64,000 nt of DNA from Paludibacter sp. (GTDB lineage Bacteria; Bacteroidota; Bacteroidia; Bacteroidales; Paludibacteraceae), in contig JAQTUE010000003.1 in NCBI GenBank assembly GCA_028710415.1, positions 62,001 through 126,000 on the forward strand, written 5' to 3'. Shown in pieces: positions 16,904-29,696 of this stretch; position 1 is the stretch's first letter, and every line of letters starts with the position of its first letter. The notes beneath the pieces were generated by a model that worked only from the letters and a program-made list of their open reading frames with translations, had not been told where the DNA came from and did not search any database. The translations under genes and the position numbers were made by a program.

Positions 16904-19900
16904 ATGTCATTATTTCAAATTCAAGTTGAACGTCAATATATTGCAGGAATCACAACTAACCTGAGCCCGATATATGAAAAGTATCTTGCATATTTTGGCA
17001 ATCAGGATATACAGGCAAATATATTACAGGTTAAGGAAGAGCAATATCAGGGTGAATTTATCCGTGCTTTATTTGTAGATATATTGGGATATACCGCCCA
17101 ACCCCATTTAAATTATAATCTGCTCAGGGAAAAGAAAAACGAAACAGATGCAAAAAGTGCAGATGCTGCCATCATTGTCAATAATAAAATTGTAGCAGTA
17201 ATAGAACTGAAAGACCATAAAACACAGGATCTGAAAAAGATTGAGCCACAGGCTTTCGGTTATAAAAACAATCATAGTAACTGTCGGTATGTTGTCACTT
17301 CAAATTTTGAACGGCTGAGGTTTTATATTGAGAATGCAGTGGAGTTTATTGAATTCGATCTATTTAATCTTACTTACGATGATTTTAAACGGTTGTGGTT
17401 GTGCCTTTCATATGAAAGTATCCTGAAGGACCTACCACTGGAAGTAAAAAAAGAATCAGTTAGTAACGAGGATATTATTACCAAGAAACTGTATAAGGAT
17501 TATTCGGTATTTAAACGTTCCCTTTTTGACAATATCGTATTATTGAATCCGGAATACGATAAACTGCTGCTTTTTAAGAAGACACAAAAGCTGTTGGACC
17601 GATTCCTGTTCCTGTTTTTTGCAGAAGATAAAGAATTACTTCCTGCCAATTCTGTAAAAAGCACTGTAGAAAAGTGGGGAAGATACAATTCCGACCCAAT
17701 GAACGACTATCGCACGTTGTACAGTCGATTTGTAAGATACTTCAAATTGTTGGATGAAGGTTATAAGGATGCCAATGTAGAGATATATGCTTATAATGGA
17801 GGGTTATTTGCAAACGACGAAATCTTAAATAGTATCAGGATTGATGATGCTATTTTGTCTGAGAATATACTTAAATTGACAATATACGATTTCGGTACTG
17901 AAGTAGATGTAAACATACTTGGACATATTTTTGAAAACAGTCTGAATGAAATTGAAGAGGTTACTAATGAAATAACCACCGGCGTAAAGACTACCTCCAG
18001 ACGTAGACAGGAAGGAGTGTTTTATACCCCACGTTATATCACCCAGTATATTGTTGAAAATACCGTTGGACGTTTGTGTGAAGAAAAGAAGGTTGAACTG
18101 GGTATTGGCGAGGAACTATTTGAATATAAGCGTGCCGACAAAAAGAAACAGGCACTGAAAGTGTTTGACAAGTATCGTGACTGGCTGTTACAAATTACCA
18201 TCGTGGACCCGGCTTGCGGGAGTGGAGCATTTCTGAATACAGCACTTGATTTTTTAATAGCCGAACATGCCTGGATTGACAGCCAACAGGAAAAGATAAC
18301 CGGGCTAAAAGGGCACTATTCTATGGAGTTATCCAATATCGAAAACACAATTTTGGAAAACAACCTGTTCGGGGTGGATATTAACGAAGAAAGTGTGGAG
18401 ATTGCCAGACTGTCGTTGTGGCTTCGAACGGCTAAACCTCACCGTAAACTGTCTTCATTGAATGACAACATAAAGTGTGGAAACTCTCTGATTAACGATC
18501 CTACTGTAGCCGGAGAAAAAGCATTTGACTGGTACAAAGAATTTCCACAAGTATTTGGACGTAAAGGAAAAACAGAGGAGGTAATTATCATCGAAAAAAA
18601 TGAAACACCCGATTATCTGAAACTTATTAAAGAAAAGTCATTGGAAGCTCAGGCAAAAGCGGAGCAAGGAATTGAATTATCCAAAGAAGCTCTGGAAATT
18701 ACCAGGAAATTGACTGAATATGTTGATAAGTTAGAATCTGTTTCCGCACCCAAAGAAGATTATGAAAAGCAGAGTTCGGGTTTTGATGTGGTGATAGGTA
18801 ATCCACCGTATGTAAGACTTGAAACTATGAAAGACTTATCGGAATCTATGTCGAAAATGAATTATAAGACATTTGAGAAACGGGGAGATTTATATTGCCT
18901 GTTTGTTGAAAAAGGTTTTGATATCTTGAAAAAGAATGGAGTAATTTCTTTTATCATGCCTAATAAATGGTTACAAGCAGGATATGGGAAGTCATTAAGA
19001 GAGTATTTTCTGAGTTATGAACTCAATCAATTAATCGATTTTGGAGATATTCAAATCTTTGAAGGTGCTACTACCTATCCCTGTATTTTTGTTTCCCGCA
19101 AAGCAAAACCCAAAGAAGAATTTACGGTTTCAGTATTACCAGAAGCCGGTAAAGAAGATTTTTATTCAAATGTTGTTTCATCTGCCGAAACATTTAAAAC
19201 CAATCAATTCTCAGGTGACACCTGGGTGATATCTTCCTGGAAAGAAAAGAAGTTAATAGAAAGTCTTAATAATAAGTTTAGTTCATTATTTGAGTTTATT
19301 AGTGGTGAAGCTTTCTATGGAATGAAAACCGGGCTAACTGAGGCCTTTTTGATTGATGAAACAATTAGAGAACAATTAATTAAGGAACACTCTGGAGCAA
19401 AAGATATTATTAAGCCTGTTTTAAGAGGAAGAGATATCAATAAATGGGTTTCTATTGAAAGTAATAGCTATATAATTGGTACTTTTCCTGCATTAAATAT
19501 TGATATTGAAAATTATCCTTCAATTAAAAATTACTTATTAAGTTTTGGAAAAAAAAGACTTGAACAATCAGGCGAAAAAGGTAGTAGAAAGAAAGCAAAT
19601 AATAAATGGTTTGAAACTCAAGATACATTTGCATATTGGAAAGAGTTTTCTAAACCTAAAATAATGTATCAAAAGTTTCAGGTTAAACCTTGTTTTATTT
19701 ATGATGAACAAGGTCTTTATTGTAATGATTCAATGTGGATAATACCCTCAGAAAATAAAGGATTACTTGCAATACTAAATTCGAAGCTTGGTTGGTGGCT
19801 TATCACTAAATACTGCACTCAAATACAGAATGGTGTTCAATTAATCTGGAAATATTTTGGACAGATACCGATTGCAAATACAACTGATGAATTAGCTGTA

Positions 19901-20242
19901 AAAGCCAACGAAATGCTTTCTTTAAATACTGAATTGCATGAAGTATCACAGAAATTCCAGCGTATGTTGCAACGTAAGTTTGAGTTGGAAGATTTACCCA
20001 TAAAACTGCAAAACTGGTACACACTGTCGTATAAAGAATTTATTGCTGAGTTAGGCAAGAAAAAAGTAAAACTAACCCTTGCCCAGGAAGCTGAATGGGA
20101 AGAGTATTTCAATGCTGAACAAGTTAAAGCCATGCAAGTTAAAAATCAGATTGAAGAAACCGATAAAGAGATTGACATAATGGTGTATAAGCTGTATGGG
20201 TTGACGGAAGAGGAAGTGGGAATTGTGGAGGGGAAAAAGTAA
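16904..20242 (+). CDS. Type IIG restriction-modification enzyme (Eco57I-like, nuclease-methylase-specificity in one chain)
   Basis: This 1112-aa protein would cut and methylate DNA at its own recognition site. The N-terminal nuclease shows a PD-(D/E)xK-like core: D87 in ADAAIIV and E101-L-K103 in VIELKDHKT. The adenine methylase has motif I DPACGSGAFL (from 435) and motif IV NPPYV (633-637). The C-terminal 450 residues are a TaqI-like target-recognition domain and coiled-coil end. Length fits the family. No separate R, M or S gene lies beside it. The gene sits between two long direct repeats, which fits acquisition as a cassette. Base composition shifts to AT-rich near 19260-19850, inside the recognition domain, suggesting that part was exchanged. 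Confidence 0.92.
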   Translation: MSLFQIQVERQYIAGITTNLSPIYEKYLAYFGNQDIQANILQVKEEQYQGEFIRALFVDILGYTAQPHLNYNLLREKKNETDAKSADAAIIVNNKIVAVIELKDHKTQDLKKIEPQAFGYKNNHSNCRYVVTSNFERLRFYIENAVEFIEFDLFNLTYDDFKRLWLCLSYESILKDLPLEVKKESVSNEDIITKKLYKDYSVFKRSLFDNIVLLNPEYDKLLLFKKTQKLLDRFLFLFFAEDKELLPANSVKSTVEKWGRYNSDPMNDYRTLYSRFVRYFKLLDEGYKDANVEIYAYNGGLFANDEILNSIRIDDAILSENILKLTIYDFGTEVDVNILGHIFENSLNEIEEVTNEITTGVKTTSRRRQEGVFYTPRYITQYIVENTVGRLCEEKKVELGIGEELFEYKRADKKKQALKVFDKYRDWLLQITIVDPACGSGAFLNTALDFLIAEHAWIDSQQEKITGLKGHYSMELSNIENTILENNLFGVDINEESVEIARLSLWLRTAKPHRKLSSLNDNIKCGNSLINDPTVAGEKAFDWYKEFPQVFGRKGKTEEVIIIEKNETPDYLKLIKEKSLEAQAKAEQGIELSKEALEITRKLTEYVDKLESVSAPKEDYEKQSSGFDVVIGNPPYVRLETMKDLSESMSKMNYKTFEKRGDLYCLFVEKGFDILKKNGVISFIMPNKWLQAGYGKSLREYFLSYELNQLIDFGDIQIFEGATTYPCIFVSRKAKPKEEFTVSVLPEAGKEDFYSNVVSSAETFKTNQFSGDTWVISSWKEKKLIESLNNKFSSLFEFISGEAFYGMKTGLTEAFLIDETIREQLIKEHSGAKDIIKPVLRGRDINKWVSIESNSYIIGTFPALNIDIENYPSIKNYLLSFGKKRLEQSGEKGSRKKANNKWFETQDTFAYWKEFSKPKIMYQKFQVKPCFIYDEQGLYCNDSMWIIPSENKGLLAILNSKLGWWLITKYCTQIQNGVQLIWKYFGQIPIANTTDELAVKANEMLSLNTELHEVSQKFQRMLQRKFELEDLPIKLQNWYTLSYKEFIAELGKKKVKLTLAQEAEWEEYFNAEQVKAMQVKNQIEETDKEIDIMVYKLYGLTEEEVGIVEGKK

Positions 20243-21008: not shown

Positions 21009-21107
21009 CTGATATTAAGAACAAAAAATAAATCGGAAACTAAAACTAAATGCGAACTATGTCCGGTTAACTGAACATATCCATTTTCAACTAAGCATAT
21101 TCACGGG

Positions 21108-21118
21108 TTAGTGGCAAG
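21108..21118. repeat. Right core of an attC-like repeat before the first cassette
   Basis: GGGTTAGTGGCAAG matches the right ends of the fuller repeats (CGTTAGGGGCAAG at 22016-22028, CGTTAGCAGCAAG at 25612-25624). It lies 36 nt before the first cassette gene. Confidence 0.55.
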
Positions 21119-21153
21119 CATAAAAAAAACATACAACCAAAGAGTAAATAAGT

Positions 21154-21858
21154 ATGACTGAAATTGATGTAGACTTTGACTTTCGAAAAGACAGTAAATG
21201 TGGTGACCCTGATGCAGACAGCCAAAAACTATATGAAGCTCATAAATTATTGTGGAGCAAATCATTGCCTTGTGGGAAAAATTTTGAATTGAAAATTATA
21301 GGTGACAGTTACGGTAGGATACTGATAAATAGTGATTTGTATGCAAATTTATCAAGCGACAGAATGTGTCCACATTTTGATGGAAATTATAACGGGAAAT
21401 TTGACGGTTGGCTTTCTGACTTTGAAAGAGAAGAATTGAAACATAAAGTTCGCACTATTGGAGGACATATAATTTTTCCTGCTAACAAGAAAAATGGTTT
21501 TACAGTAAATCAAGCCAGAGGGGTAAGCAGAATAATTTGCGACAGATTTGATTTAACATTAGAATGTATTAGACGTTTTTACAAAAACGAACACAGTCCA
21601 CTTTATGACACACTTACGAGATACAAAGATTTTTTTGATTTGTTCATTGACTTTAGTGGATATGTTGACTTCTTTATGTTGCATGACTTTATTTATGACA
21701 ACGAGAAAATAAACTTTTCTTTGCAGTTTGACAACTTTAACCGACCTGCATTACCTCAGACTGTTGACGAATACAAACAATATAAAAATCATACAATAGG
21801 TTTAATGAATAGCAGAAACATGAGAATTTTAGAAAGTATTAAAACTGCGATTAAATGA
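21154..21858 (+). CDS. Cytosolic protein of unknown function (DUF6994-like)
   Basis: This 234-aa protein has no signal peptide or membrane span. It starts MTEIDVDFDFRKDSKCGDPDADS and has LHKLLWSK-like AHKLLWSKSLPCGK (about 28), SDRMCPHFDG (about 68), GGHIIFPANKK (about 103) and FKDFFDLFIDFSGYVDFF-like aromatic-rich stretches. This pattern matches proteins I recall as DUF6994, found scattered in unrelated bacteria, as expected of a mobile cassette gene. It is the first gene of the array and is followed within 3 nt by an attC-like repeat. No function is known to me. Confidence 0.6.
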   Translation: MTEIDVDFDFRKDSKCGDPDADSQKLYEAHKLLWSKSLPCGKNFELKIIGDSYGRILINSDLYANLSSDRMCPHFDGNYNGKFDGWLSDFEREELKHKVRTIGGHIIFPANKKNGFTVNQARGVSRIICDRFDLTLECIRRFYKNEHSPLYDTLTRYKDFFDLFIDFSGYVDFFMLHDFIYDNEKINFSLQFDNFNRPALPQTVDEYKQYKNHTIGLMNSRNMRILESIKTAIK

Positions 21859-21860
21859 AT

Positions 21861-22028
21861 GCCAGCCACTAACACACGCTCTTATGTTCATTGGCTGGCT
21901 GACGTGCATTCCGGCAGTTTTGCTCCCGCATTCACTTTGTCGCTCCACGACAGCGAATGCTCCCGCAAATGGTACATGCCGAGAATCGGTACCTCCAAAT
22001 GCCCATAGCCTCAGTCGTTAGGGGCAAG
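21861..22028. repeat. attC-like imperfect hairpin repeat, copy 1
   Basis: Starts GCCACTAACACACGCTC and ends CAGTCGTTAGGGGCAAG, so the ends are inverted cores (CTAAC / GTTAG). Inside, GACGTGCATTCCGGCAG, GCATTCACTTTGTCG and CGACAGCGAATGC, GGTACATGCCGAGAATCGG, and CCAAATGCCCATAG pair back towards the left arm. About 165 nt would fold as one long bulged hairpin, as integron attC sites do. The core does not match the integron consensus GTTRRRY exactly. Related copies are at 25450-25624 and 26452-26585. Confidence 0.75.
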
Positions 22029-22099
22029 TTTAGAAAAAAAAAGATAGCGCGAAAAATTAGAATCTGACAGCAAACAAACACCTTAAAAACAGAAACTAT

Positions 22100-22804
22100 A
22101 TGGAAAGAGACATTAACGACTTTATAACTATTGTTAGACAAAAAAATGGAATTATAAAAATTACTCATAATCTTTCAAATGAGGGTAACATTTACAAACT
22201 ATTGAGAGACCTCGGTTTTAGAAAAGCCAAATTAAACAAGAAATATGTTTATTTTCGACGAGAAAGTGGCACTGTAATTCTTTCCTCATTTCAAGAAATG
22301 AAAGATGCATTTCGAGATATACTTAAAAAATATGAGTTCACAAATATCCCAGATGACATTAGATATGATTCTGTCTTAAATTGGTATCATAATAGAAGAC
22401 CTATTAAAGAAAATGGACTTTTTAATCATTACTTAGAGGACAGTTTAACTGAATTTGAGGGTGAAATTTTAGTACCTGTTGATCCTAAAAACAAAACCAG
22501 GAAATTTAATACAGAGAATTTACTGACAAAGCTTGAAGAATTGAAATTCAAATCAACTGTTGACAAAATTGGTACGTATTGCATAAACAATCCGCTTTAC
22601 TATAAAAAAGTTGGAGAGAATAAATATCTTATCTTTAATCACTTCAACTCAAAGAATAAAAACAATGACGGCTTCGACAGTTGGCTTGCAACTTATTCAA
22701 CTGAAAATCAAATTGGAAGCAAGAAACCGTTACTAATTGAAGATATTCGCTTGAATTTTATATTAGACCGAGATTTTGAATTAATTGAAAACTATCTACA
22801 TTGA
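22100..22804 (+). CDS. Unknown cytosolic protein, cassette 2 first gene
   Basis: I do not recognise this 234-aa protein. It is soluble and rich in Lys and Asn. The N-terminus (DFITIVRQKNGIIKITHNLS...) looks like a short alpha/beta unit, followed by KKYVYFRRESGTVILSS and a central NWYHNRRPIKENGLFNHYLEDSL. A later GFDSWLATYS stretch ends the fold. The gene follows an attC-like repeat by 70 nt and is 70 nt upstream of a membrane protein gene, so the two may form one cassette. AT content is high compared with the core genome genes. Confidence 0.6.
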   Translation: MERDINDFITIVRQKNGIIKITHNLSNEGNIYKLLRDLGFRKAKLNKKYVYFRRESGTVILSSFQEMKDAFRDILKKYEFTNIPDDIRYDSVLNWYHNRRPIKENGLFNHYLEDSLTEFEGEILVPVDPKNKTRKFNTENLLTKLEELKFKSTVDKIGTYCINNPLYYKKVGENKYLIFNHFNSKNKNNDGFDSWLATYSTENQIGSKKPLLIEDIRLNFILDRDFELIENYLH

Positions 22805-22874
22805 AAACAATTAATCTGAATTTTATTTTCTAACAATCATTTTACTAATTTGAATCACATATTTACAAACTGTC

Positions 22875-23657
22875 ATGAAAGAAAAAAATAATATTATTGT
22901 CGTAACAAGCCTGATATCCTTAGGATTACTAATAATTTTCTTTGCTCTCCAACTAATTAATTCTGATGTTTTGGATTTAGATGTAAAGTGGATTATTGTT
23001 TCCGCTTCACCTGTAATTATTGGATTGATTTTATCTGGTATCATAAAATCTTTTAAAGGATTTGGAGTTGAACTAGAATTGAATTTATTAGAAAAAGTTG
23101 AATCGGGATCGGGATTAATTGGTAGAGTTGAGTGTTTTCCAACTACTGAGTTAACTAAACAATCTACGAACGTTTTATTTTCAATGTCTGAAGAAAGAAG
23201 AAATTCAATTGAACGATTGCAGCTTATTTCTGGCAAGATAAATTATTATGATTATTACGCACTAAACGAATATATTCAGAATTTGCGCAGATTAAAGTAT
23301 ATAGAGTTTATTGATAATAATGGTAGGTTTCAAGCTTTATTATCTGTGAATAGTTTCAGGAAAAATCATAGTCGCTTAGAAAACAACGACAATTTAGAAA
23401 AAATTGAGGCACTTATACAAAGTGTTGAGAGAGAAGACTACAAAGATTATTATAGAAGCATTATCACTGAAACAATTTTATTAAGCGACTCTTTAATTGT
23501 TGCATACAAGAAGTTTCAAAGAACTAAAAATGTCGTTATTTCATTTAGCGACCAGATATTACCTGTTTTGGATTCAAATGATAAGATGATAGGTATAACA
23601 AGCAGAATAAAACTAACAGAAAAAATTGCTGAACAAGTTGTCAAATCAGAAAAATGA
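22875..23657 (+). CDS. Two-TM membrane protein with CBS-like C-terminus, cassette 2 second gene
   Basis: The 260-aa protein has two N-terminal membrane segments (about 8-27 and 39-60), then a soluble region of about 190 residues. The end (about 215-250: KNVVISFSDQILPVLDSNDKMIGITSRIKLTEKIAE) has the strand-helix pattern of a CBS motif, with LPVLDSNDKMIGITSR as the typical core. A tandem partner CBS motif is not obvious. The layout (2 TM plus sensory or effector soluble part) recalls small membrane effectors of defence systems, but I cannot assign it. An attC-like right core follows directly after the stop. Confidence 0.6.
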   Translation: MKEKNNIIVVTSLISLGLLIIFFALQLINSDVLDLDVKWIIVSASPVIIGLILSGIIKSFKGFGVELELNLLEKVESGSGLIGRVECFPTTELTKQSTNVLFSMSEERRNSIERLQLISGKINYYDYYALNEYIQNLRRLKYIEFIDNNGRFQALLSVNSFRKNHSRLENNDNLEKIEALIQSVEREDYKDYYRSIITETILLSDSLIVAYKKFQRTKNVVISFSDQILPVLDSNDKMIGITSRIKLTEKIAEQVVKSEK

Positions 23658-23664
23658 CTAAAAA

Positions 23665-23698
23665 CCTAGCCCATAGCCTCGGTCGTTAGCAGCCATTA
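23665..23698. repeat. Reduced attC-like boundary
   Basis: Only the right arm is present: GCCCATAGCCTCGGTCGTTAGCAGCC, matching 22001-22026 and the 25598-25623 end. It separates the membrane protein gene from the HEPN gene. Confidence 0.65.
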
Positions 23699-23706
23699 TA
23701 AAAAAA

Positions 23707-24468
23707 ATGACAGATAGTACGAAAATAAGATATATTCAACCACCCAAACAGTTAATGTCTGGATTTCTAAACTTTGCAAAAGAAATAGAGCAAAAGTGTA
23801 TTGAGAATGGTGTGAAGTTTACAGAAAACGATATTGCAGAGATTTTCAATAATAGTTTTCCAGGAAAGATTAGAGCAAATTTTTTCCTCTGGGTTGGGGA
23901 CTTAAACGATATTATTGATGGAATGAATATCATATTGACAGACTTGTCTGATTTACGTAAGGACAAAAACTCATTAAAAGGTAATCCTATTGTAAGAAGC
24001 GAATTACTTTTTCAAGCTTTTTTTGGAGAGTTTTTTAGAATGAGAGAAATATCTAAGATATTTATGAAGTTGTTGACTTACGAGAGAGTTCTTAACAAGA
24101 AAGCTAAACAAGCTTTTGTTGGATTCTATTTTGAAGCTTTTGATACGATATATGAGATTAGAAATAAGCTAATTCACCAAGGTGTATCATTCAAGAAATA
24201 TGACGTAAATTTAGACTTATCTATTTTCGACGACTTAACTATTGAAGAGCAAGAAAAATTTATTTCACTAATAAAAGAGTCTAATACGAGAGAAAATACT
24301 GTTGAAATACAATGTGCGATTTACATTAAAATGATTAAATACTCAATGCATACATTTATTGAATTTCAAGAGATGCTAAATGTAGTTCTAGCAGATTTAA
24401 TTATTAGCTACGAAAAAGAAGTATTGACAATTACGGTTGAAAAAAATAATAATAACAAAAGTTTATAA
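23707..24468 (+). CDS. HEPN-like protein, cassette 3 first gene
   Basis: This 253-aa, largely alpha-helical protein has EIRNKLIHQG with R152 and H157, an Rx4H motif as in the active site of HEPN RNases (Rx4-6H). The preceding helix (KAKQAFVGFYFEAFDTIY) and following segment fit a HEPN four-helix bundle in the middle third of the chain. The next gene starts 1 nt after its stop, so the two are co-translated. HEPN proteins often act as RNases in toxin-antitoxin and antiphage systems; others only bind nucleotides. The assignment rests on the motif and helical context. Confidence 0.6.
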   Translation: MTDSTKIRYIQPPKQLMSGFLNFAKEIEQKCIENGVKFTENDIAEIFNNSFPGKIRANFFLWVGDLNDIIDGMNIILTDLSDLRKDKNSLKGNPIVRSELLFQAFFGEFFRMREISKIFMKLLTYERVLNKKAKQAFVGFYFEAFDTIYEIRNKLIHQGVSFKKYDVNLDLSIFDDLTIEEQEKFISLIKESNTRENTVEIQCAIYIKMIKYSMHTFIEFQEMLNVVLADLIISYEKEVLTITVEKNNNNKSL

Positions 24469-24469
24469 A

Positions 24470-25039
24470 ATGACAAAAGAAGAGCAAATTAAGTTAGACT
24501 GTTGGGATAATTCCCTAATGACAATAGGAACTTCATATATTTTTACTCAAAAAGCAAAAAAATACAAAATTTATATTCGTACGATTACAATTTTAGGACT
24601 TATCGTCCCATTGCTTTTAGGAGCATTGGTTGCTGCTTATGGACAAAACTCTTCTATCTTGACAATCGCAATTTTCATTACAGCTCCAATCGCAATTCTA
24701 CAAATCGTATTATCAGGAATATCTCTAGTCTTAAAATGGGACGATTTATTAGCTTATTCATTAGAATCTCAAACAGAAAACAGAATATTATTTGACGAAT
24801 ATCAAAAACTAGCAAAATATTCGACAACAGATATTTTGGAACTTGAGAAACAATTTGACATTTTAAAAGTAAAAGACAATGCGCGAACAGTGCAAGATGA
24901 GAAAATAACATTCACAGGTAAAGAGAATAGGAAAGGAATGCGATATGGTCTTTACATATTGAAAAGACAATGCGCAACATGTAATACTATTCCACAATCA
25001 ATGACACCAACAGACTGCAATACTTGCGGCAATTACTAA
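24470..25039 (+). CDS. SLATT-like 2-TM protein with CxxC-x11-CxxC tail
   Basis: I choose ATG 24470 (1 nt after the HEPN stop) over an upstream in-frame start inside the HEPN gene; this gives 189 aa. Two adjacent membrane segments (about 43-65 and 69-96) are flanked by amphipathic helices (FTQKAKKYKIYIR before; WDDLLAYSLESQTENRILFDEYQKLAKY after), the layout of SLATT pore-forming effector domains. The C-terminus has C168, C171, C183 and C186, exactly CxxC-x11-CxxC, a likely zinc ribbon. I recall a family named after this motif as a mobilome protein. SLATT domains occur in nucleotide-signalled defence. An effector role is inference. Confidence 0.7.
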   Translation: MTKEEQIKLDCWDNSLMTIGTSYIFTQKAKKYKIYIRTITILGLIVPLLLGALVAAYGQNSSILTIAIFITAPIAILQIVLSGISLVLKWDDLLAYSLESQTENRILFDEYQKLAKYSTTDILELEKQFDILKVKDNARTVQDEKITFTGKENRKGMRYGLYILKRQCATCNTIPQSMTPTDCNTCGNY

Positions 25040-25058
25040 CAATTAAAACCAATAACAA

Positions 25059-25256
25059 ATGACACCTAATGTACAAAGACTAATTAATGATTTCGCTAAT
25101 TTATCAGAATCAGACAAAATTGAAGTAGCTGAGTTTTTCAAAAGATATAGGGAATCGGTTGTGGGAAGAGAAAGTAACACTCGGACTTATACTCAAAGAA
25201 ATGAAAGAATACTGGGCCCAACAGCTAATGCCACTTGTCCATTTTGTGGAAAATAG
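25059..25256 (+). CDS. Small protein with C-terminal CPFCGK
   Basis: The 65-aa protein has an N-terminal helical region (VQRLINDFANLSESDKIEVAEFFKRYRES), a basic Arg/Thr-rich middle, and ends CPFCGK, half of a zinc ribbon. It lies 19 nt after the CxxC-x11-CxxC gene, so the HEPN, 2-TM and this gene form a three-gene unit bounded by attC-like repeats. The two half-ribbon pattern suggests a metal-binding partner or inhibitor. I recognise no family. Confidence 0.6.
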   Translation: MTPNVQRLINDFANLSESDKIEVAEFFKRYRESVVGRESNTRTYTQRNERILGPTANATCPFCGK

Positions 25257-25276
25257 ACTTGATTACAGACTGACCA

Positions 25277-25340
25277 AATAACGGCTGCTAATACATAGGG
25301 CTTCGTGCGGTCGGTACGACCCAGCATGAAGCCTCGGTTG
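25277..25340. repeat. Left core of an attC-like repeat
   Basis: AACGGCTGCTAATACATAGGGC... is the inverse of GTTAGCAGC at the right ends. It starts 20 nt after the small CPFCGK gene, then changes into unrelated sequence. About 110 nt of unassigned DNA separate it from the next left arm. Confidence 0.5.
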
Positions 25341-25449
25341 CACTACATCCCTGAGAGGTTTTTTGTGGAGAGAAAAATAAAAGCGTTTGTTTACTATTGA
25401 GTTATCGGTGTGTTTCGTTGAGTTTCCAAATAGACTCTTTTGAAGAAAA

Positions 25450-25624
25450 CACGCCTATGGTCATTTGCTGGCTGACCCCGCTAAGGCGGGGCAAGCAGTG
25501 CATTCCGGCAGTTTTGCCCTGCATTCACTTTGTAGTTTCACGACAGTGAATGCTTCCTCCCGCAAAAGGTACATGCCGAGAAACGGTACCGCCAAATGCC
25601 CATAATTCGGTCGTTAGCAGCAAG
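25450..25624. repeat. attC-like imperfect hairpin repeat, copy 2
   Basis: It shares GTGCATTCCGGCAGTTTTGC, GCATTCACTTTGTAG, CACGACAGTGAATGC, GGTACATGCCGAGAAACGG, CCAAATGCCCATAA and the end CGGTCGTTAGCAGCAAG with the copy at 21861-22028. It differs by a 20-nt insert containing CCCCGCTAAGGCGGGG, itself a hairpin, in the left arm. Two base changes in the central stem (ACAGTGAATGC against ACAGCGAATGC) keep it paired only weakly. Confidence 0.75.
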
Positions 25625-25692
25625 CCGTAAAAAAAAAAGAAAAAGAAAGAAACGACTGCGGTAATCCCAGCCGAAATCAGTAAAATAGAATC

Positions 25693-25809
25693 ATGACTTT
25701 AGAACAAAACCTCGACAACATTCTCCGCGCTGGCTCGGGTCTCCTGACTAGTGCTATTACAAATGAAAGAGAGCAATATTTTGGACAGAGGTCAATGAAC
25801 GCTCAATAG
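25693..25809 (+). CDS. Possible 38-aa peptide or gene remnant
   Basis: The open frame MTLEQNLDNILRAGSGLLTS... starts 69 nt after an attC-like right core, exactly where cassette genes begin, and ends 26 nt before the lipoprotein start. The sequence looks protein-like (helical, no repeats) and may be the N-terminal stub of a lost gene or a leader peptide. No family recognised. Confidence 0.35.
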   Translation: MTLEQNLDNILRAGSGLLTSAITNEREQYFGQRSMNAQ

Positions 25810-25835
25810 TCAATAGCATAAAAAAAATGTACCAT

Positions 25836-26384
25836 ATGAAAAAGATTCTTTATTTATTAATTTTAATTAGTCTCAGCTCTTGTTTGCACTCACAAGAGCA
25901 GGATTCAATTAGCGATTTTAATACTTTAATTGGGAAAAAGTATTCCGATTATGAAGAAATCGGAAGTCCAAATTCGTTTAATAACTATTTCATTGACTCA
26001 GAACATGGCTTCGGAATTAGTGGATTTAGATACAAGAATGCTGTAATATTTACCTTAGAGTTGAATGTTGGAATGAAGGGTAGAAAAGCAATTAGTAAGA
26101 TAGTAGATTTGATTTATGCGCCCGATAATTGTTATTTCGTTAGTACAAATTGTTACAAATTAGTAAATGGGAAAGACACAATTGGAGATGAATATATAGT
26201 ATTTAAAAAGATGGATACTGTTTTAAAGGATAAAGTATTAGCGATTTACAAAGCAAACAAGGTAACCAGTAAATTTGAGTTAATGAATTCTGATTGTTTT
26301 ACAGATTGTTTGATATTTAATGAGGTATCAAAGTTCAATATTTTTAAATCAAAAGATGGGTATACAGTAAATTATTTTGAGTAA
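25836..26384 (+). CDS. Small lipoprotein of unknown function, cassette gene
   Basis: I prefer ATG 25836 (MKKILYLLILISLSSCLHS, 182 aa) because it gives a clean lipoprotein signal with lipobox LSSC; an in-frame ATG 9 nt upstream is less likely. The mature part (about 165 residues) begins with a Ser/Asp-rich linker, then KKYSDYEEIGSPNSFNN and an alpha/beta region without motifs I know. It should be anchored in a membrane facing the periplasm or outside. Followed by an attC-like repeat. Confidence 0.65.
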   Translation: MKKILYLLILISLSSCLHSQEQDSISDFNTLIGKKYSDYEEIGSPNSFNNYFIDSEHGFGISGFRYKNAVIFTLELNVGMKGRKAISKIVDLIYAPDNCYFVSTNCYKLVNGKDTIGDEYIVFKKMDTVLKDKVLAIYKANKVTSKFELMNSDCFTDCLIFNEVSKFNIFKSKDGYTVNYFE

Positions 26385-26451
26385 TTGTTGTACAAAAAGC
26401 GAATAGCCTCCGTAGAAAAGGAAATAACGACCAAATTAATCGCAAAACGGC

Positions 26452-26585
26452 CATGCTGCTAACATACGCTCTATTGGAATTGGCTGACTGACGTGCATTC
26501 CGGCAGTTTTGCTCCCGCATTCACTTTTTCGTTTCACGACAGCGAATGCACCTACAAACCGCCAAATGCCCTAACTCCGGCGTTT
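26452..26585. repeat. attC-like imperfect hairpin repeat, copy 3
   Basis: Begins CATGCTGCTAACATACGCTC (perfect inverse of GTTAGCAGC) and shares TTGGCTGACTGACGTGCATT, CCGGCAGTTTTGCTCCCGC, CACGACAGCGAATGC and CGCCAAATGCCC with copy 1. The right arm is shortened (the GGTACATGCCG stretch is lost), and the right core has decayed to CGGCGTTTTGAA. It lies about 55 nt after the lipoprotein gene. Confidence 0.7.
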
Positions 26586-26636
26586 TGAATCATTGTAATC
26601 AACCAGACAAGCATTCGCAAACAATTAAAATATAAA

Positions 26637-27026
26637 ATGACAAAATTAGACCCAATAATTGCAGTAACTGACGTTGAAGCAAGTTCGGAGTGGTATCAAA
26701 AAATATTTGGATTTAAAAAGAATCACGGTGGCAACCATTTTTCCGTTTTAGTTTCTGACAATGGAGAAATTATTCTCTGCCTTCACAAATGGGAAGAACA
26801 TAACCATCCGACAATGATAAATCCAGGTATAACGCCTGGAAATGGACTATTGCTTTACTTCAGAACAGAGAATCTGAATGATATTTACCAAAATGCTTTA
26901 GAAGCAGGTTGTCTGATAGAAGAAGATATTCACTTAAATACAAATTCCCTGAGAAAAGAGTTTTCTTTTCGTGACCCTGACGGATATTTTTTGACTATTA
27001 CTGAATTTCATACGTATGAAGGGTAA
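26637..27026 (+). CDS. VOC/glyoxalase-fold protein
   Basis: The 129-aa protein is a vicinal-oxygen-chelate domain: two beta-alpha-beta-beta-beta units with DPIIAVTDVEASSEWYQKIFGF at the start, GGNHFSVLVSDNGEIILCLH in the first half and FRDPDGYFLTITEF at the end. Relatives include glyoxalase I, bleomycin and fosfomycin resistance proteins and many unknowns. The substrate cannot be read. VOC genes are frequent cassette cargo in integrons, which fits its place as the last gene of this array. Confidence 0.85.
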   Translation: MTKLDPIIAVTDVEASSEWYQKIFGFKKNHGGNHFSVLVSDNGEIILCLHKWEEHNHPTMINPGITPGNGLLLYFRTENLNDIYQNALEAGCLIEEDIHLNTNSLRKEFSFRDPDGYFLTITEFHTYEG

Positions 27027-27319
27027 CCCCACAAACTAAAAGATTAATAGATAGGAGTTTTCACGAATAGACAAAAAAGGAATTAAAACCGGGAAGAAAA
27101 ATAGCAAATGTTCAACAAAGGCATGAACCTTTGTGCAGTTGATTCTGTTTGTAAAAATCCGGAGGAACGGGGTACGATGGGTGCTACCAGTCCAATCAAT
27201 AATGATGAAGAACGCCTATGTATTTGTGTAAACTGAATGAGAAAATGACAAAATAAGAATCTCATTAAGAAGAGAATAGCTATTTGACTACAAAAAAAGA
27301 TAGTTTAAAGCATAAAACA

Positions 27320-27910
27320 ATGGAATTACAACTTATTCAGAGTAAAATTTATACAATAAGGGGCTATAAAGTAATGCTTGACTTTGATTTGGCCGAAATG
27401 TATGGTATTGAAACCAGGGTATTGAAACAAGCCGTAAGGCGTAATGTTGACCGCTTCGAGGGCGATGATTTCATGTTTGAACTTACAGCATATGAAGTGC
27501 AGGAGTTTTCAAGATCACAATTTGTGACCTTGAACAGAGGCAGAGGATCAAATGTTAAGTATGCCCCTTTTGCATTTACCGAATTAGGCGTGGCCATGCT
27601 CAGTAGTGTGTTGAACTCAAAAACAGCCATAGAGATAAACAGAGGAATAATGCGGGCTTTCGTAACGGTGCGTCAATTGATGTTTAATCCTCCAATTAAC
27701 AGTGCAGCGGAGCTACAAACAGAGGTAAGAGAACTTAAAAAGTACATGGAGGAAGTATTGACAGATCAGAACGAAATAAACGAAGATACACGCACCCAAC
27801 TTGAACTTATCAATCAAACATTGGCAGAAATGCAGGTAAATAATAATACAACAAGTAAACCCCGGCGACGGATTGGGTATATTTTAGATAATGAGGAAAC
27901 AACAAATTAA
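27320..27910 (+). CDS. ORF6N domain protein
   Basis: I choose ATG 27320 (MELQLIQSKIYTIRGYKVMLD, 196 aa); a TTG 36 nt upstream adds residues without family match. The N-terminal ORF6N domain covers about residues 5-90: IYTIRGYKVMLDFDLAEMYG, VLKQAVRRNVDRFEGDDFMFEL, then YAPFAFTELGVAMLSSVL. The C-terminal third is a coiled coil. ORF6N domains come from phage antirepressors and are spread through Bacteroidota genomes as single genes; they are thought to bind DNA. It closes the accessory island and is followed by the second 140-bp repeat. Confidence 0.88.
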   Translation: MELQLIQSKIYTIRGYKVMLDFDLAEMYGIETRVLKQAVRRNVDRFEGDDFMFELTAYEVQEFSRSQFVTLNRGRGSNVKYAPFAFTELGVAMLSSVLNSKTAIEINRGIMRAFVTVRQLMFNPPINSAAELQTEVRELKKYMEEVLTDQNEINEDTRTQLELINQTLAEMQVNNNTTSKPRRRIGYILDNEETTN

Positions 27911-28059: not shown

Positions 28060-28415
28060 TTGGTAGAAAAAGAAGACGCTCAAAAGTACTTCTTATGTTT
28101 TGAGGTTTGATACATGAAAGCGTTTTAGTTGGAGCAGGCTAACAATTGGGAAATGGAATGAAGACTATATCGACTTCACATCTTTGGGTTGTAATTCAAT
28201 AACTTCCAGGTTCTGGATGTTATCGCTAGCAATTTCAATCCTTATCAGGGTTTGTACCTTGTGGAAGCCGTATTACCTTAGGCACCCGGATTAAATTGGT
28301 GAAAAAAAGCTTCTTTTATAGATTTCGCTGATTATATCTATGAGAAGAATTATGAACGAAAAGTAGGGATAGATGCGATGATAGACAGTTCTTTTTTATG
28401 TCTGACTATAAAATT
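28060..28415. other. Island right edge, degenerate sequence
   Basis: Apart from the phosphoesterase remnant (28182-28290) and a CTCAAAAGTACTTCTTATGTTTTGAG hairpin near 28079, I see nothing here. Confidence 0.5.
28182..28290 (-). pseudogene. Duplicated 3' fragment of the phosphoesterase gene
   Basis: GGTTGTAATTCAATAACTTC and the following 90 nt match the 3' end of the gene at 29175-29696 (29209 onward), with base changes and indels after about 100 nt. It is in the same orientation, about 1.0 kb away. It encodes the decayed C-terminus (LEVIELQP) and lies just inside the island's right edge. Confidence 0.8.
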
Positions 28416-28947: not shown

Positions 28948-29008
28948 TCAGGTATTGCATAACGACCTGCTTTATCATCGATAAAGCAGGTCGTTATGCA
29001 ATACCTGT
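28948..29008. repeat. 28-bp perfect hairpin with 3-nt loop
   Basis: CAGGTATTGCATAACGACCT and the next 7 bases (28949-28975) pair without mismatch with 28981-29007, and C28976-G28980 closes the stem around the loop ATC. No T run follows on either strand, so it is not a standard terminator. Perfect arms imply a recent origin or selection. Confidence 0.9.
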
Positions 29009-29174: not shown

Positions 29175-29696
29175 CTATTGCACGTCATTTAATGGTTTAA
29201 CTTGTTTTGGTTGTAATTCAATAACTTCCAGGTTCTGGATCTTATCACCATCAATTTCAATGCGGATAAGGGTTTGTATTTTGTGGAAACCGTACTTGCC
29301 GGCAGCACCCGGATTGATGTGCAGCAGGTCCAGCTTTTTGTCGTTCACAACTTTCAGGATGTGTGAATGCCCGCAAACAAAAAGCTTTGGAGGTTGCTGA
29401 AAGATGGCAGGACGCACCAACGGATCATAATTGCCGGGGTAACCGCCAATGTGGGTGAGCCAGACTTTAACACCTTCGCACGTAAAGCGGTTGTGCTGGG
29501 GGAAAATAGCCCGGATATCATAGCCATCGATATTGCCCCAGACTCCACGAAGAGGTTTGAAGGCACGCAAACGGTTGACGACATCCATCGAGCCCCAGTC
29601 GCCGGCATGCCATATCTCGTCGCAATTAGCAAAATGTTCAAGAATACGGTCGTCAAGCATCCCGTGAGTGTCCGAAAGTATACCGATACGTGTCAT
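29175..29696 (-). CDS. YfcE/MJ0936-type metallophosphoesterase
   Basis: This 173-aa calcineurin-like phosphoesterase has GILSDTHG (metal ligands D and H, residues 5-12), HAGDWGSMD (about 36), GNIDGYDI (about 55), LTHIGGYPG (about 80) and FVCGHSHI (about 108). Relatives hydrolyse phosphodiesters with Mn or similar metals in the cytosol; the natural substrate is often unknown. It has a -7 element (TACTTTTG on the minus strand, 29727-29734) giving a short leader. Its 3' end is duplicated in decayed form 1 kb downstream. Confidence 0.9.
   Translation of the reverse strand: MTRIGILSDTHGMLDDRILEHFANCDEIWHAGDWGSMDVVNRLRAFKPLRGVWGNIDGYDIRAIFPQHNRFTCEGVKVWLTHIGGYPGNYDPLVRPAIFQQPPKLFVCGHSHILKVVNDKKLDLLHINPGAAGKYGFHKIQTLIRIEIDGDKIQNLEVIELQPKQVKPLNDVQ

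What the first reader, a model, noticed from the sequence alone, without database searches (positions are those of the whole stretch)
21105..27030. Integron-like gene-cassette array with a non-canonical attC-like repeat in a Bacteroidota genome
Seen: eight or more small plus-strand genes are separated by a repeat whose ends are inverted cores (GCTAAC...GTTAGC) and whose about 165-nt body folds into one bulged hairpin (copies 21861-22028, 25450-25624, 26452-26585; right ends only at 21108, 23665-23698). Each gene or gene pair starts 10-70 nt after a right core and ends a few to about 70 nt before the next left core. This is the layout of integron cassettes. The core (GTTAGGGGCAA, GTTAGCAGCAA) does not fit GTTRRRY, and no integrase is in the window. 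Inference: a Bacteroidota-specific cassette system, or an integron variant using another recombinase.
Basis: partly seen in the sequence, partly recalled or inferred. Interest (0 to 1): 0.93.

Follow-up and report, generated by a model that had tools for sequence, protein, structure and literature searches.

The report
Integron-like gene arrays with unusual recombinase
This stretch is a row of small gene cassettes with matching ends and a repeat predicted to fold into a hairpin, likely captured and shuffled by a recombinase that is built differently from the usual integron enzyme and lies beside sister arrays in many Bacteroidota, which would give these bacteria their own gene-capture system.

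Summary
In detail: window 21107-26585 carries attC-like repeats between small same-strand genes, and the genome holds some 40 copies. Three window cassettes have matching ends: bases after GTTA at the cassette start are complementary to those before the left core at its far end. Genome-wide, 22 such pairs beat all 20,000 shuffles. Two cassettes shared between species break at GTTA. The enzyme missing here exists in relatives: a tyrosine recombinase (open frames 520-608 aa) upstream of sister arrays, in the same direction, with N-terminal HARP-like repeats and without the IntI-specific insertion. At 41 loci of such recombinases, 75 cassette pairs with an A/G mismatch at position 11 lie downstream, 1 upstream; 20 canonical IntI loci gave none. 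Predicted folding favours the bottom strand at 32 of 34 sites. In a sample of the window's class, the HARP-type N terminus is in 72 of 395 genomes, canonical IntI in 1. The window array has no integrase; decayed pieces lie beside two other arrays of the genome. I read it as an orphan array of an integron variant; recombination itself is untested.

The parts
21107..22016 (+). cassette 1: starts at GTTA 21107, own left core ends at 21873, site body to 22016
   Evidence: start GTTAGTGGCAAGCA and reverse complement of the end GTTAGTGGCTGGCA match at 12 of 14, A/G at position 11
21154..21858 (+). gene of cassette 1, DUF6994 protein, 234 aa
   Evidence: PF22507, 285 bits
21861..22028 (+). attC-like repeat copy of cassette 1 with the next right core
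22017..23684 (+). cassette 2 with genes 22100-22804 and 22875-23657; its site is cut down to 23664-23684
   Evidence: outer end CCTAGCCC remains next to ATAGCCTCGGTC; middle of the site is absent
23685..25336 (+). cassette 3 with genes 23707-24468, 24473-25039 (TIGR04402) and 25059-25256; left core near 25292, followed by a site body of another sequence
   Evidence: start GTTAGCAGCCATTAT against TTAGCAGCCGTTAT at the end, A/G at position 11
25337..25612 (+). gene-less, partly eroded stretch that holds the second repeat copy (25450-25624) without a recognisable left core
25613..26580 (+). cassette 4 with gene 25827-26384; left core ends at 26463
   Evidence: start GTTAGCAGCAAGCC and end GTTAGCAGCATGGCC match at 11 of 13 in register
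26452..26585 (+). last attC-like repeat copy; its right core (GTTTTG) is eroded
26637..27026 (+). glyoxalase-like gene after the last site, with no later site seen

Best explanation
The window holds an integron-like gene-cassette array without an integrase, whose cassettes carry matched ends and an attC-like repeat predicted to fold as a bottom-strand hairpin, and which was likely built by recombination at the GTTA core by a tyrosine recombinase with N-terminal HARP-like repeats of the kind that lies beside sister arrays in related genomes. Shown from sequence: the layout, the complementarity of the two ends of one cassette, two cross-species breakpoints at GTTA, the recombinase upstream of and parallel to arrays, and the absence of the IntI-specific insertion. 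Inferred: the recombinase acts on these sites; it takes the folded bottom strand; the HARP-like repeats help it hold the hairpin in place of the IntI insertion; the DNA just after the recombinase gene serves as attI; the window array is an orphan whose recombinase was lost or works from elsewhere.
For: End complementarity: 131 of 198 positions in 22 consecutive own-genome pairs, shuffle mean 104.5, sd 5.0, highest of 20,000 shuffles 125; pairs within one repeat at background. Direct repeats downstream of the recombinase in many loci and few upstream. 85 pairs of at least 12/14 downstream in 234,677 bp against 6 upstream in 188,437 bp at 40 loci; with A/G at position 11, 75 against 1 at 41 loci, 28 of 41 loci having at least one, first signature cassette 32-264 nt after the recombinase stop in 15 of those 28. 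None of 77 such pairs at 20 canonical IntI loci has the A/G mark (1 of 149 in the looser scan of 11 loci). Breakpoints. Recombinase next to repeats in L087, L088, L089 and, cut by the contig end, L091. Bottom strand more stable at 32 of 34 sites from 15 loci, p 1.4e-6. HARP over Pfam cut-off in 2 of 10 N termini and in the precomputed domains of 19 of the 120 listed relatives. Decayed recombinase pieces upstream of and parallel to own-genome arrays on C65 and C54.
Confidence: 0.82

Rival explanations
1. It is an ordinary orphan array (CALIN) of a canonical IntI integron, with IntI lost or elsewhere; the HARP-type recombinase is a bystander.
For: Canonical IntI is common in the wider phylum: over cut-off in 105 of 395 sampled genomes, nearly all outside the window's class; array logic is the same; canonical loci also show about 10-nt end complementarity.
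Against: TIGR02249 is over cut-off in 0 of 48 genomes of the genus and 1 of 395 of the class, while 42 of 48 genus genomes carry the repeat. The decayed pieces beside own arrays match the HARP-type family. Canonical arrays lie mostly on the divergent side (63 pairs against 14) without the A/G mark.
Confidence: 0.08
2. The chromosomal XerC/XerD or another recombinase of the host moves the cassettes, and the HARP-type protein has another job.
For: The own genome has arrays but, as intact tyrosine recombinases, only five PF00589 genes, two of them Xer-like; many one-repeat relatives of about 350-410 aa were not tied to arrays here.
Against: Position of the HARP-type gene at the array head in many genera and the 75-to-1 downstream excess; its relics beside own arrays.
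Confidence: 0.06
3. The repeats are MITE-like or REP-like intergenic repeats, and shared blocks spread by homologous recombination between copies.
For: Copies are similar enough for homologous exchange, and most cross-locus match ends that fall near cores lie inside shared repeats.
Against: The two ends of one unit are complementary, those of one repeat are not; one break joins two unrelated repeat bodies at CGTTA; different bodies serve the same role within one array.
Confidence: 0.04

Closest known systems
Integrons with an IntI integrase (chromosomal and mobile)
   Same: Arrays of short same-direction genes; sites with long imperfect inverted arms; cassette-specific core ends; bottom strand favoured in predicted folds; a tyrosine recombinase at the array head
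   Different: The recombinase lacks the IntI insertion (68 residues of 2a3v face 25 here), has HARP-like N-terminal repeats, and points the same way as the cassettes; A/G mark at position 11 of the cassette ends
Orphan attC clusters (CALIN)
   Same: The window array has sites and cassettes and no integrase
   Different: Whether the standard attC model would detect it was not tested
Reverse-orientation integrons of Spirochaetota (named in a passage of PMC9668308)
   Same: Integrase in reverse of the usual orientation
   Different: Those are IntI; here the enzyme is not
XerA and other Xer recombinases
   Same: Catalytic half scores nearly as high with XerA 5hxy (164.7 bits) as with integron integrase 2a3v (168 bits); database names are often 'recombinase XerD'
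   Different: HARP-like repeats and cassette arrays
HARP domain of SMARCAL1-type helicases (PF07443)
   Same: Pfam HARP over cut-off in two of ten N termini; SMARCAL1 HARP 4o66, XPB and UvsW among fold matches
   Different: Here in up to three copies and fused to a tyrosine recombinase; DNA binding of the known domains is recalled, not tested

Membership tests
Integron (IntI type) | IntI integrase with the IntI-specific additional domain near patch III | tested here: not met
   Insertion absent against 2a3v; TIGR02249 below its 265-bit cut-off in 48 of 48 genus genomes and for L111 (208.9 bits)
Integron (IntI type) | Tandem cassettes with a site at the 3' end, whose core pairs with the cassette's own start | tested here: met
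Integron (IntI type) | Site folds as a bottom-strand hairpin | tested here: met
   Prediction only: bottom strand more stable at 32 of 34 circle-form sites; the in-place repeat folds poorly
Integron (IntI type) | GTTRRRY core | tested here: not met
   9 of 75 starts fit; canonical loci scanned here mostly fail it too, 18 of 149 fit
Integron (IntI type) | attI next to the integrase gene | tested here: inconclusive
   First signature cassette 32-264 nt after the stop in 15 of 28 loci; no attI function shown
Integron (IntI type) | Integrase divergent from the cassettes | tested here: not met
   Same direction in L087-L089 and in the 75-to-1 excess downstream; canonical loci show the divergent layout. 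Not universal for IntI either
Integron (IntI type) | Demonstrated cassette excision and insertion | not testable with these tools
   Breakpoints at GTTA in two cross-species comparisons only
CALIN | At least two attC sites without integrase nearby | tested here: met
   Three repeat copies, no integrase in the window; with sites of the kind described here, not by the standard attC model
HARP domain (PF07443) | Match over the curated cut-off | tested here: met
   34.0 bits in L107 and 25.1 in L122 against a cut-off of 25; six others of ten listed below it, two without a match
HARP domain (PF07443) | Same fold as SMARCAL1 HARP | tested here: inconclusive
Tyrosine recombinase | Phage_integrase domain | tested here: met
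   PF00589 149.3 and 145.8 bits

The most novel reading that the evidence does not exclude
The window's class of Bacteroidota runs its own integron class: a recombinase with HARP-like fork-binding repeats has taken the place of IntI, reads long-stemmed folded cassette ends with a G.T wobble in the bottom strand, and feeds arrays that point the same way as itself. It would be a second, separately built solution to single-strand cassette capture, widespread in a class where canonical IntI is nearly absent.
Probability: 0.6. Interest if true: 0.93.

Novelty: new variant of a known kind. Interest (0 to 1): 0.87.

Why it matters
Integrons are a major natural gene-capture platform, and the IntI-specific domain is described as necessary for integron recombination (passage of PMC9668308). 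IntegronFinder 2.0 named one complete integron in Bacteroidetes proper, Salinibacter ruber M1 (passage of PMC9024848). My survey finds canonical IntI common in other classes of the phylum but in 1 of 395 genomes of the window's class, where the HARP-type N terminus is in 72. If HARP-type recombinases do the same work, a wide gene-flow system has been filed under 'XerD', searches need a new integrase profile and site model, and what lets a recombinase accept a folded strand becomes testable by removing the HARP-like repeats.

Tried and rejected
Rfam: no match at gathering scores. RNAalifold on in-place repeats: 3 pairs, so search model R1 is nearly a sequence profile. MITE-like and homologous-recombination readings: set aside on end complementarity and breakpoints. 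Canonical IntI in the class: 1 of 395, though 105 of 395 in the phylum, which I had not expected. GTTRRRY failure as a mark: dropped. TIGR04402 as a cassette marker: 2 of 272 genomes over cut-off, and E. coli among the controls; not informative. tet(X) as a cassette: no A/G pair in L282 or L283; one pair of 12/14 without the mark spans tet(X) in L283, at chance level. Direct repeats downstream of the Adonisia recombinase (L171) look like coding sequence. Cross-locus matches: of 14 matches of 300 bp or more (three within the own genome), 9 touch sites, and 11 of their 18 query-side ends lie within 24 nt of a core; since repeats are shared, I rest on the two base-resolved cases. Tree: IntI is one side of a branch (100/99), HARP-type rows fall outside it, but one-repeat rows sit in an unresolved fork and Xer rows are long, so one origin of all HARP-type proteins is not shown. 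Papers: ten searches listed no report of a HARP-recombinase integron or of this site class; the library holds no preprints and few subscription papers. PMC8138268, PMC9024848, PMC8618304 and PMC9668308 were seen as passages only.
Full report
What is in the window. Eight small plus-strand ORFs lie in 21154-27026, separated by repeat copies at 21861-22028, 25450-25624 and 26452-26585 and by right ends alone at 21107 and 23664-23698. The own genome (G000; window = C101:62001-126000) has 46 blastn matches to one copy, many in arrays with about 1 kb spacing.

The unit is a cassette. If the repeats were attC-like sites, the bases just after GTTA would belong to the next cassette and be complementary to the bases before the left core at that cassette's far end. 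I tested 37 of the 44 merged own-genome copies: 22 consecutive pairs closer than 3 kb match at 131 of 198 positions, against a shuffle mean of 104.5 (sd 5.0, highest of 20,000 shuffles 125); pairs within one repeat are at background, 4.24 of 9 against 4.32 for all pairs. Some copies in that alignment are out of register by a few bases, which works against the result. In the window three cassettes show it: 21107/21873, 23685/25292 and 25613/26463. The site after 25292 has a body of another sequence.

Movement between species. One own-genome cassette (L044 255-892) is 93.3% identical over 639 bp to a cassette of another species of the genus (L196), while the repeat bodies on either side are much less alike; the match starts in the last bases of the right arm and stops at the left core. 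In a second pair (L199/L205) the similarity begins at CGTTAGCAGCC, and upstream of it L199 has an unrelated repeat body.

The recombinase. Model R1 finds the repeat in 42 of 48 genomes of the genus, own genome included, and in 1 of 32 genomes of other families. TIGR02249 gave no canonical IntI in the genus (0 of 48 over cut-off) but a group of open frames of 520-608 aa. In L087, L088 and L089 such a gene lies upstream of and parallel to repeats, and L091 has a repeat cut by the contig end: 4 of 15 fetched loci. The protein has a tyrosine-recombinase half (PF00589 149.3 bits) and about 280 N-terminal residues with three repeats. An alignment of 34 N termini gave a model of three beta-beta-alpha-beta-beta-alpha-beta units (mean pLDDT 85.6, pTM 0.41). 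Pfam HARP is over cut-off in two of ten N termini; SMARCAL1 HARP, XPB and UvsW are among the fold matches, all at weak scores and mixed with unrelated folds. That HARP, XPB and UvsW domains bind forked or unusual DNA is recalled. Proteins with one or two such units also occur.

Not IntI. The nearest solved chains by profile are an integron integrase (2a3v, 168 bits) and XerA (164.7 bits); 68 residues of 2a3v face 25 of the query, so the IntI-specific insertion is absent. In a tree of 49 catalytic halves the 15 canonical IntI form one side of a branch (100/99) and the HARP-type rows fall outside it.

Spread. A scan with the recombinase kept the best 80 loci of a capped list, among them Paludibacter, Spirosoma, Arundinibacter, Runella, Belliella and Algoriphagus. 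L102 equals the contig of G036 and is titled Paludibacter sp., so the window's genus is probably Paludibacter-like (inference). In 41 of these loci, 75 cassette pairs with A at position 11 of the start and G in the reverse complement of the end lie in 235,742 bp downstream of the recombinase and 1 in 188,444 bp upstream; 28 of 41 loci have at least one. Twenty canonical IntI loci gave 63 pairs on the divergent side and 14 on the parallel side in 343 kb, none with the mark; a looser scan of 11 of them gave 1 of 149, against 75 of 162 at 24 HARP-type loci. In 395 sampled genomes of the class the HARP-type N terminus is in 72 at E <= 1e-10 and canonical IntI over cut-off in 1; in 395 of the phylum the numbers are 32 and 105. 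Many of the 72 are one-unit proteins that I did not tie to arrays. A protein search found 2,650 relatives at E <= 1e-20 among the 7,996 scored candidates.

Strand. At 34 sites from 15 loci with both borders fixed by signature cassettes, joined in silico to the cassette's own start, the bottom strand folds better at 32 (mean -32.7 against -28.8 kcal/mol; Wilcoxon p 1.4e-6; mean z against shuffles -5.4 and -3.9). The A/G mismatch gives a T.G wobble in the bottom strand and an A.C mismatch in the top strand, which would account for part of the bias. IntI binds the folded bottom strand of attC (passage of PMC8618304).

The window array itself. It has no integrase and no relic at E <= 0.01. The own genome shows no HARP-type N terminus at E <= 1e-10, but decayed pieces, 55-56% identical over 36-39 residues (E 4.7e-12), lie upstream of and parallel to the C65 array, a weaker one (41%, E 1.7e-4) by the C54 array, and one on C47 away from known arrays. 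The A/G mark is in 2 of 3 window cassettes but in about 1 of the 25 own-genome pairs printed, where A/T at position 10 plus an extra base is commoner. So the window is best read as an orphan array with partly eroded sites (23664-23698, 25337-25612, 26581).

Verdict. It works like an integron; it is not an IntI integron, since a defining feature was tested and not met. I file it as a new variant of a known kind. Recombination, attI and the role of the HARP-like repeats are inferred.

Noticed in passing
L282 4474-5178 (NZ_CP044520.1) and L283 5001-5705 (FJ012881.1), Acinetobacter baumannii and uncultured plasmids: A recombinase that matches only the catalytic half of the HARP-type enzyme (74.6% identity, residues 323-558 of L111) sits just upstream of and parallel to tet(X5) and tet(X3); 51 plasmid records match at 60-80%. 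This is the layout of an array head, but no cassette ends with the A/G mark were found around tet(X).
   Followed up: partly
window 24473-25039: Cassette 3 encodes TIGR04402 'mobilome CxxCx(11)CxxC protein' (200.9 bits, cut-off 70); 2 of 272 class genomes have it over cut-off.
   Followed up: partly
window 16904-20242: Type IIG restriction enzyme-methyltransferase directly upstream of the array (PADLOC 868.9 bits).
   Followed up: no
window 27323-27910: Gene after the array matches PADLOC candidate PDC-S05 (159.8 bits).
   Followed up: no
window 28175-28272 and 29197-29294; 28949-29007: An 85% direct repeat of 98 nt inside and near a metallophosphoesterase-like gene, and a perfect 28-nt inverted repeat.
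   Followed up: no
G086-type phylum sample, loci L252-L261 and L262-L281: Canonical IntI is over cut-off in 105 of 395 genomes sampled from the phylum, nearly all outside the window's class, more than the survey passage that I saw suggests.
   Followed up: partly
L035 6784-7011 and 8712-8948 (G000:C50): Two site bodies seem to abut through GAACT..AGTTCAAC, which reads like a gene-less cassette of about 16 nt.
   Followed up: no
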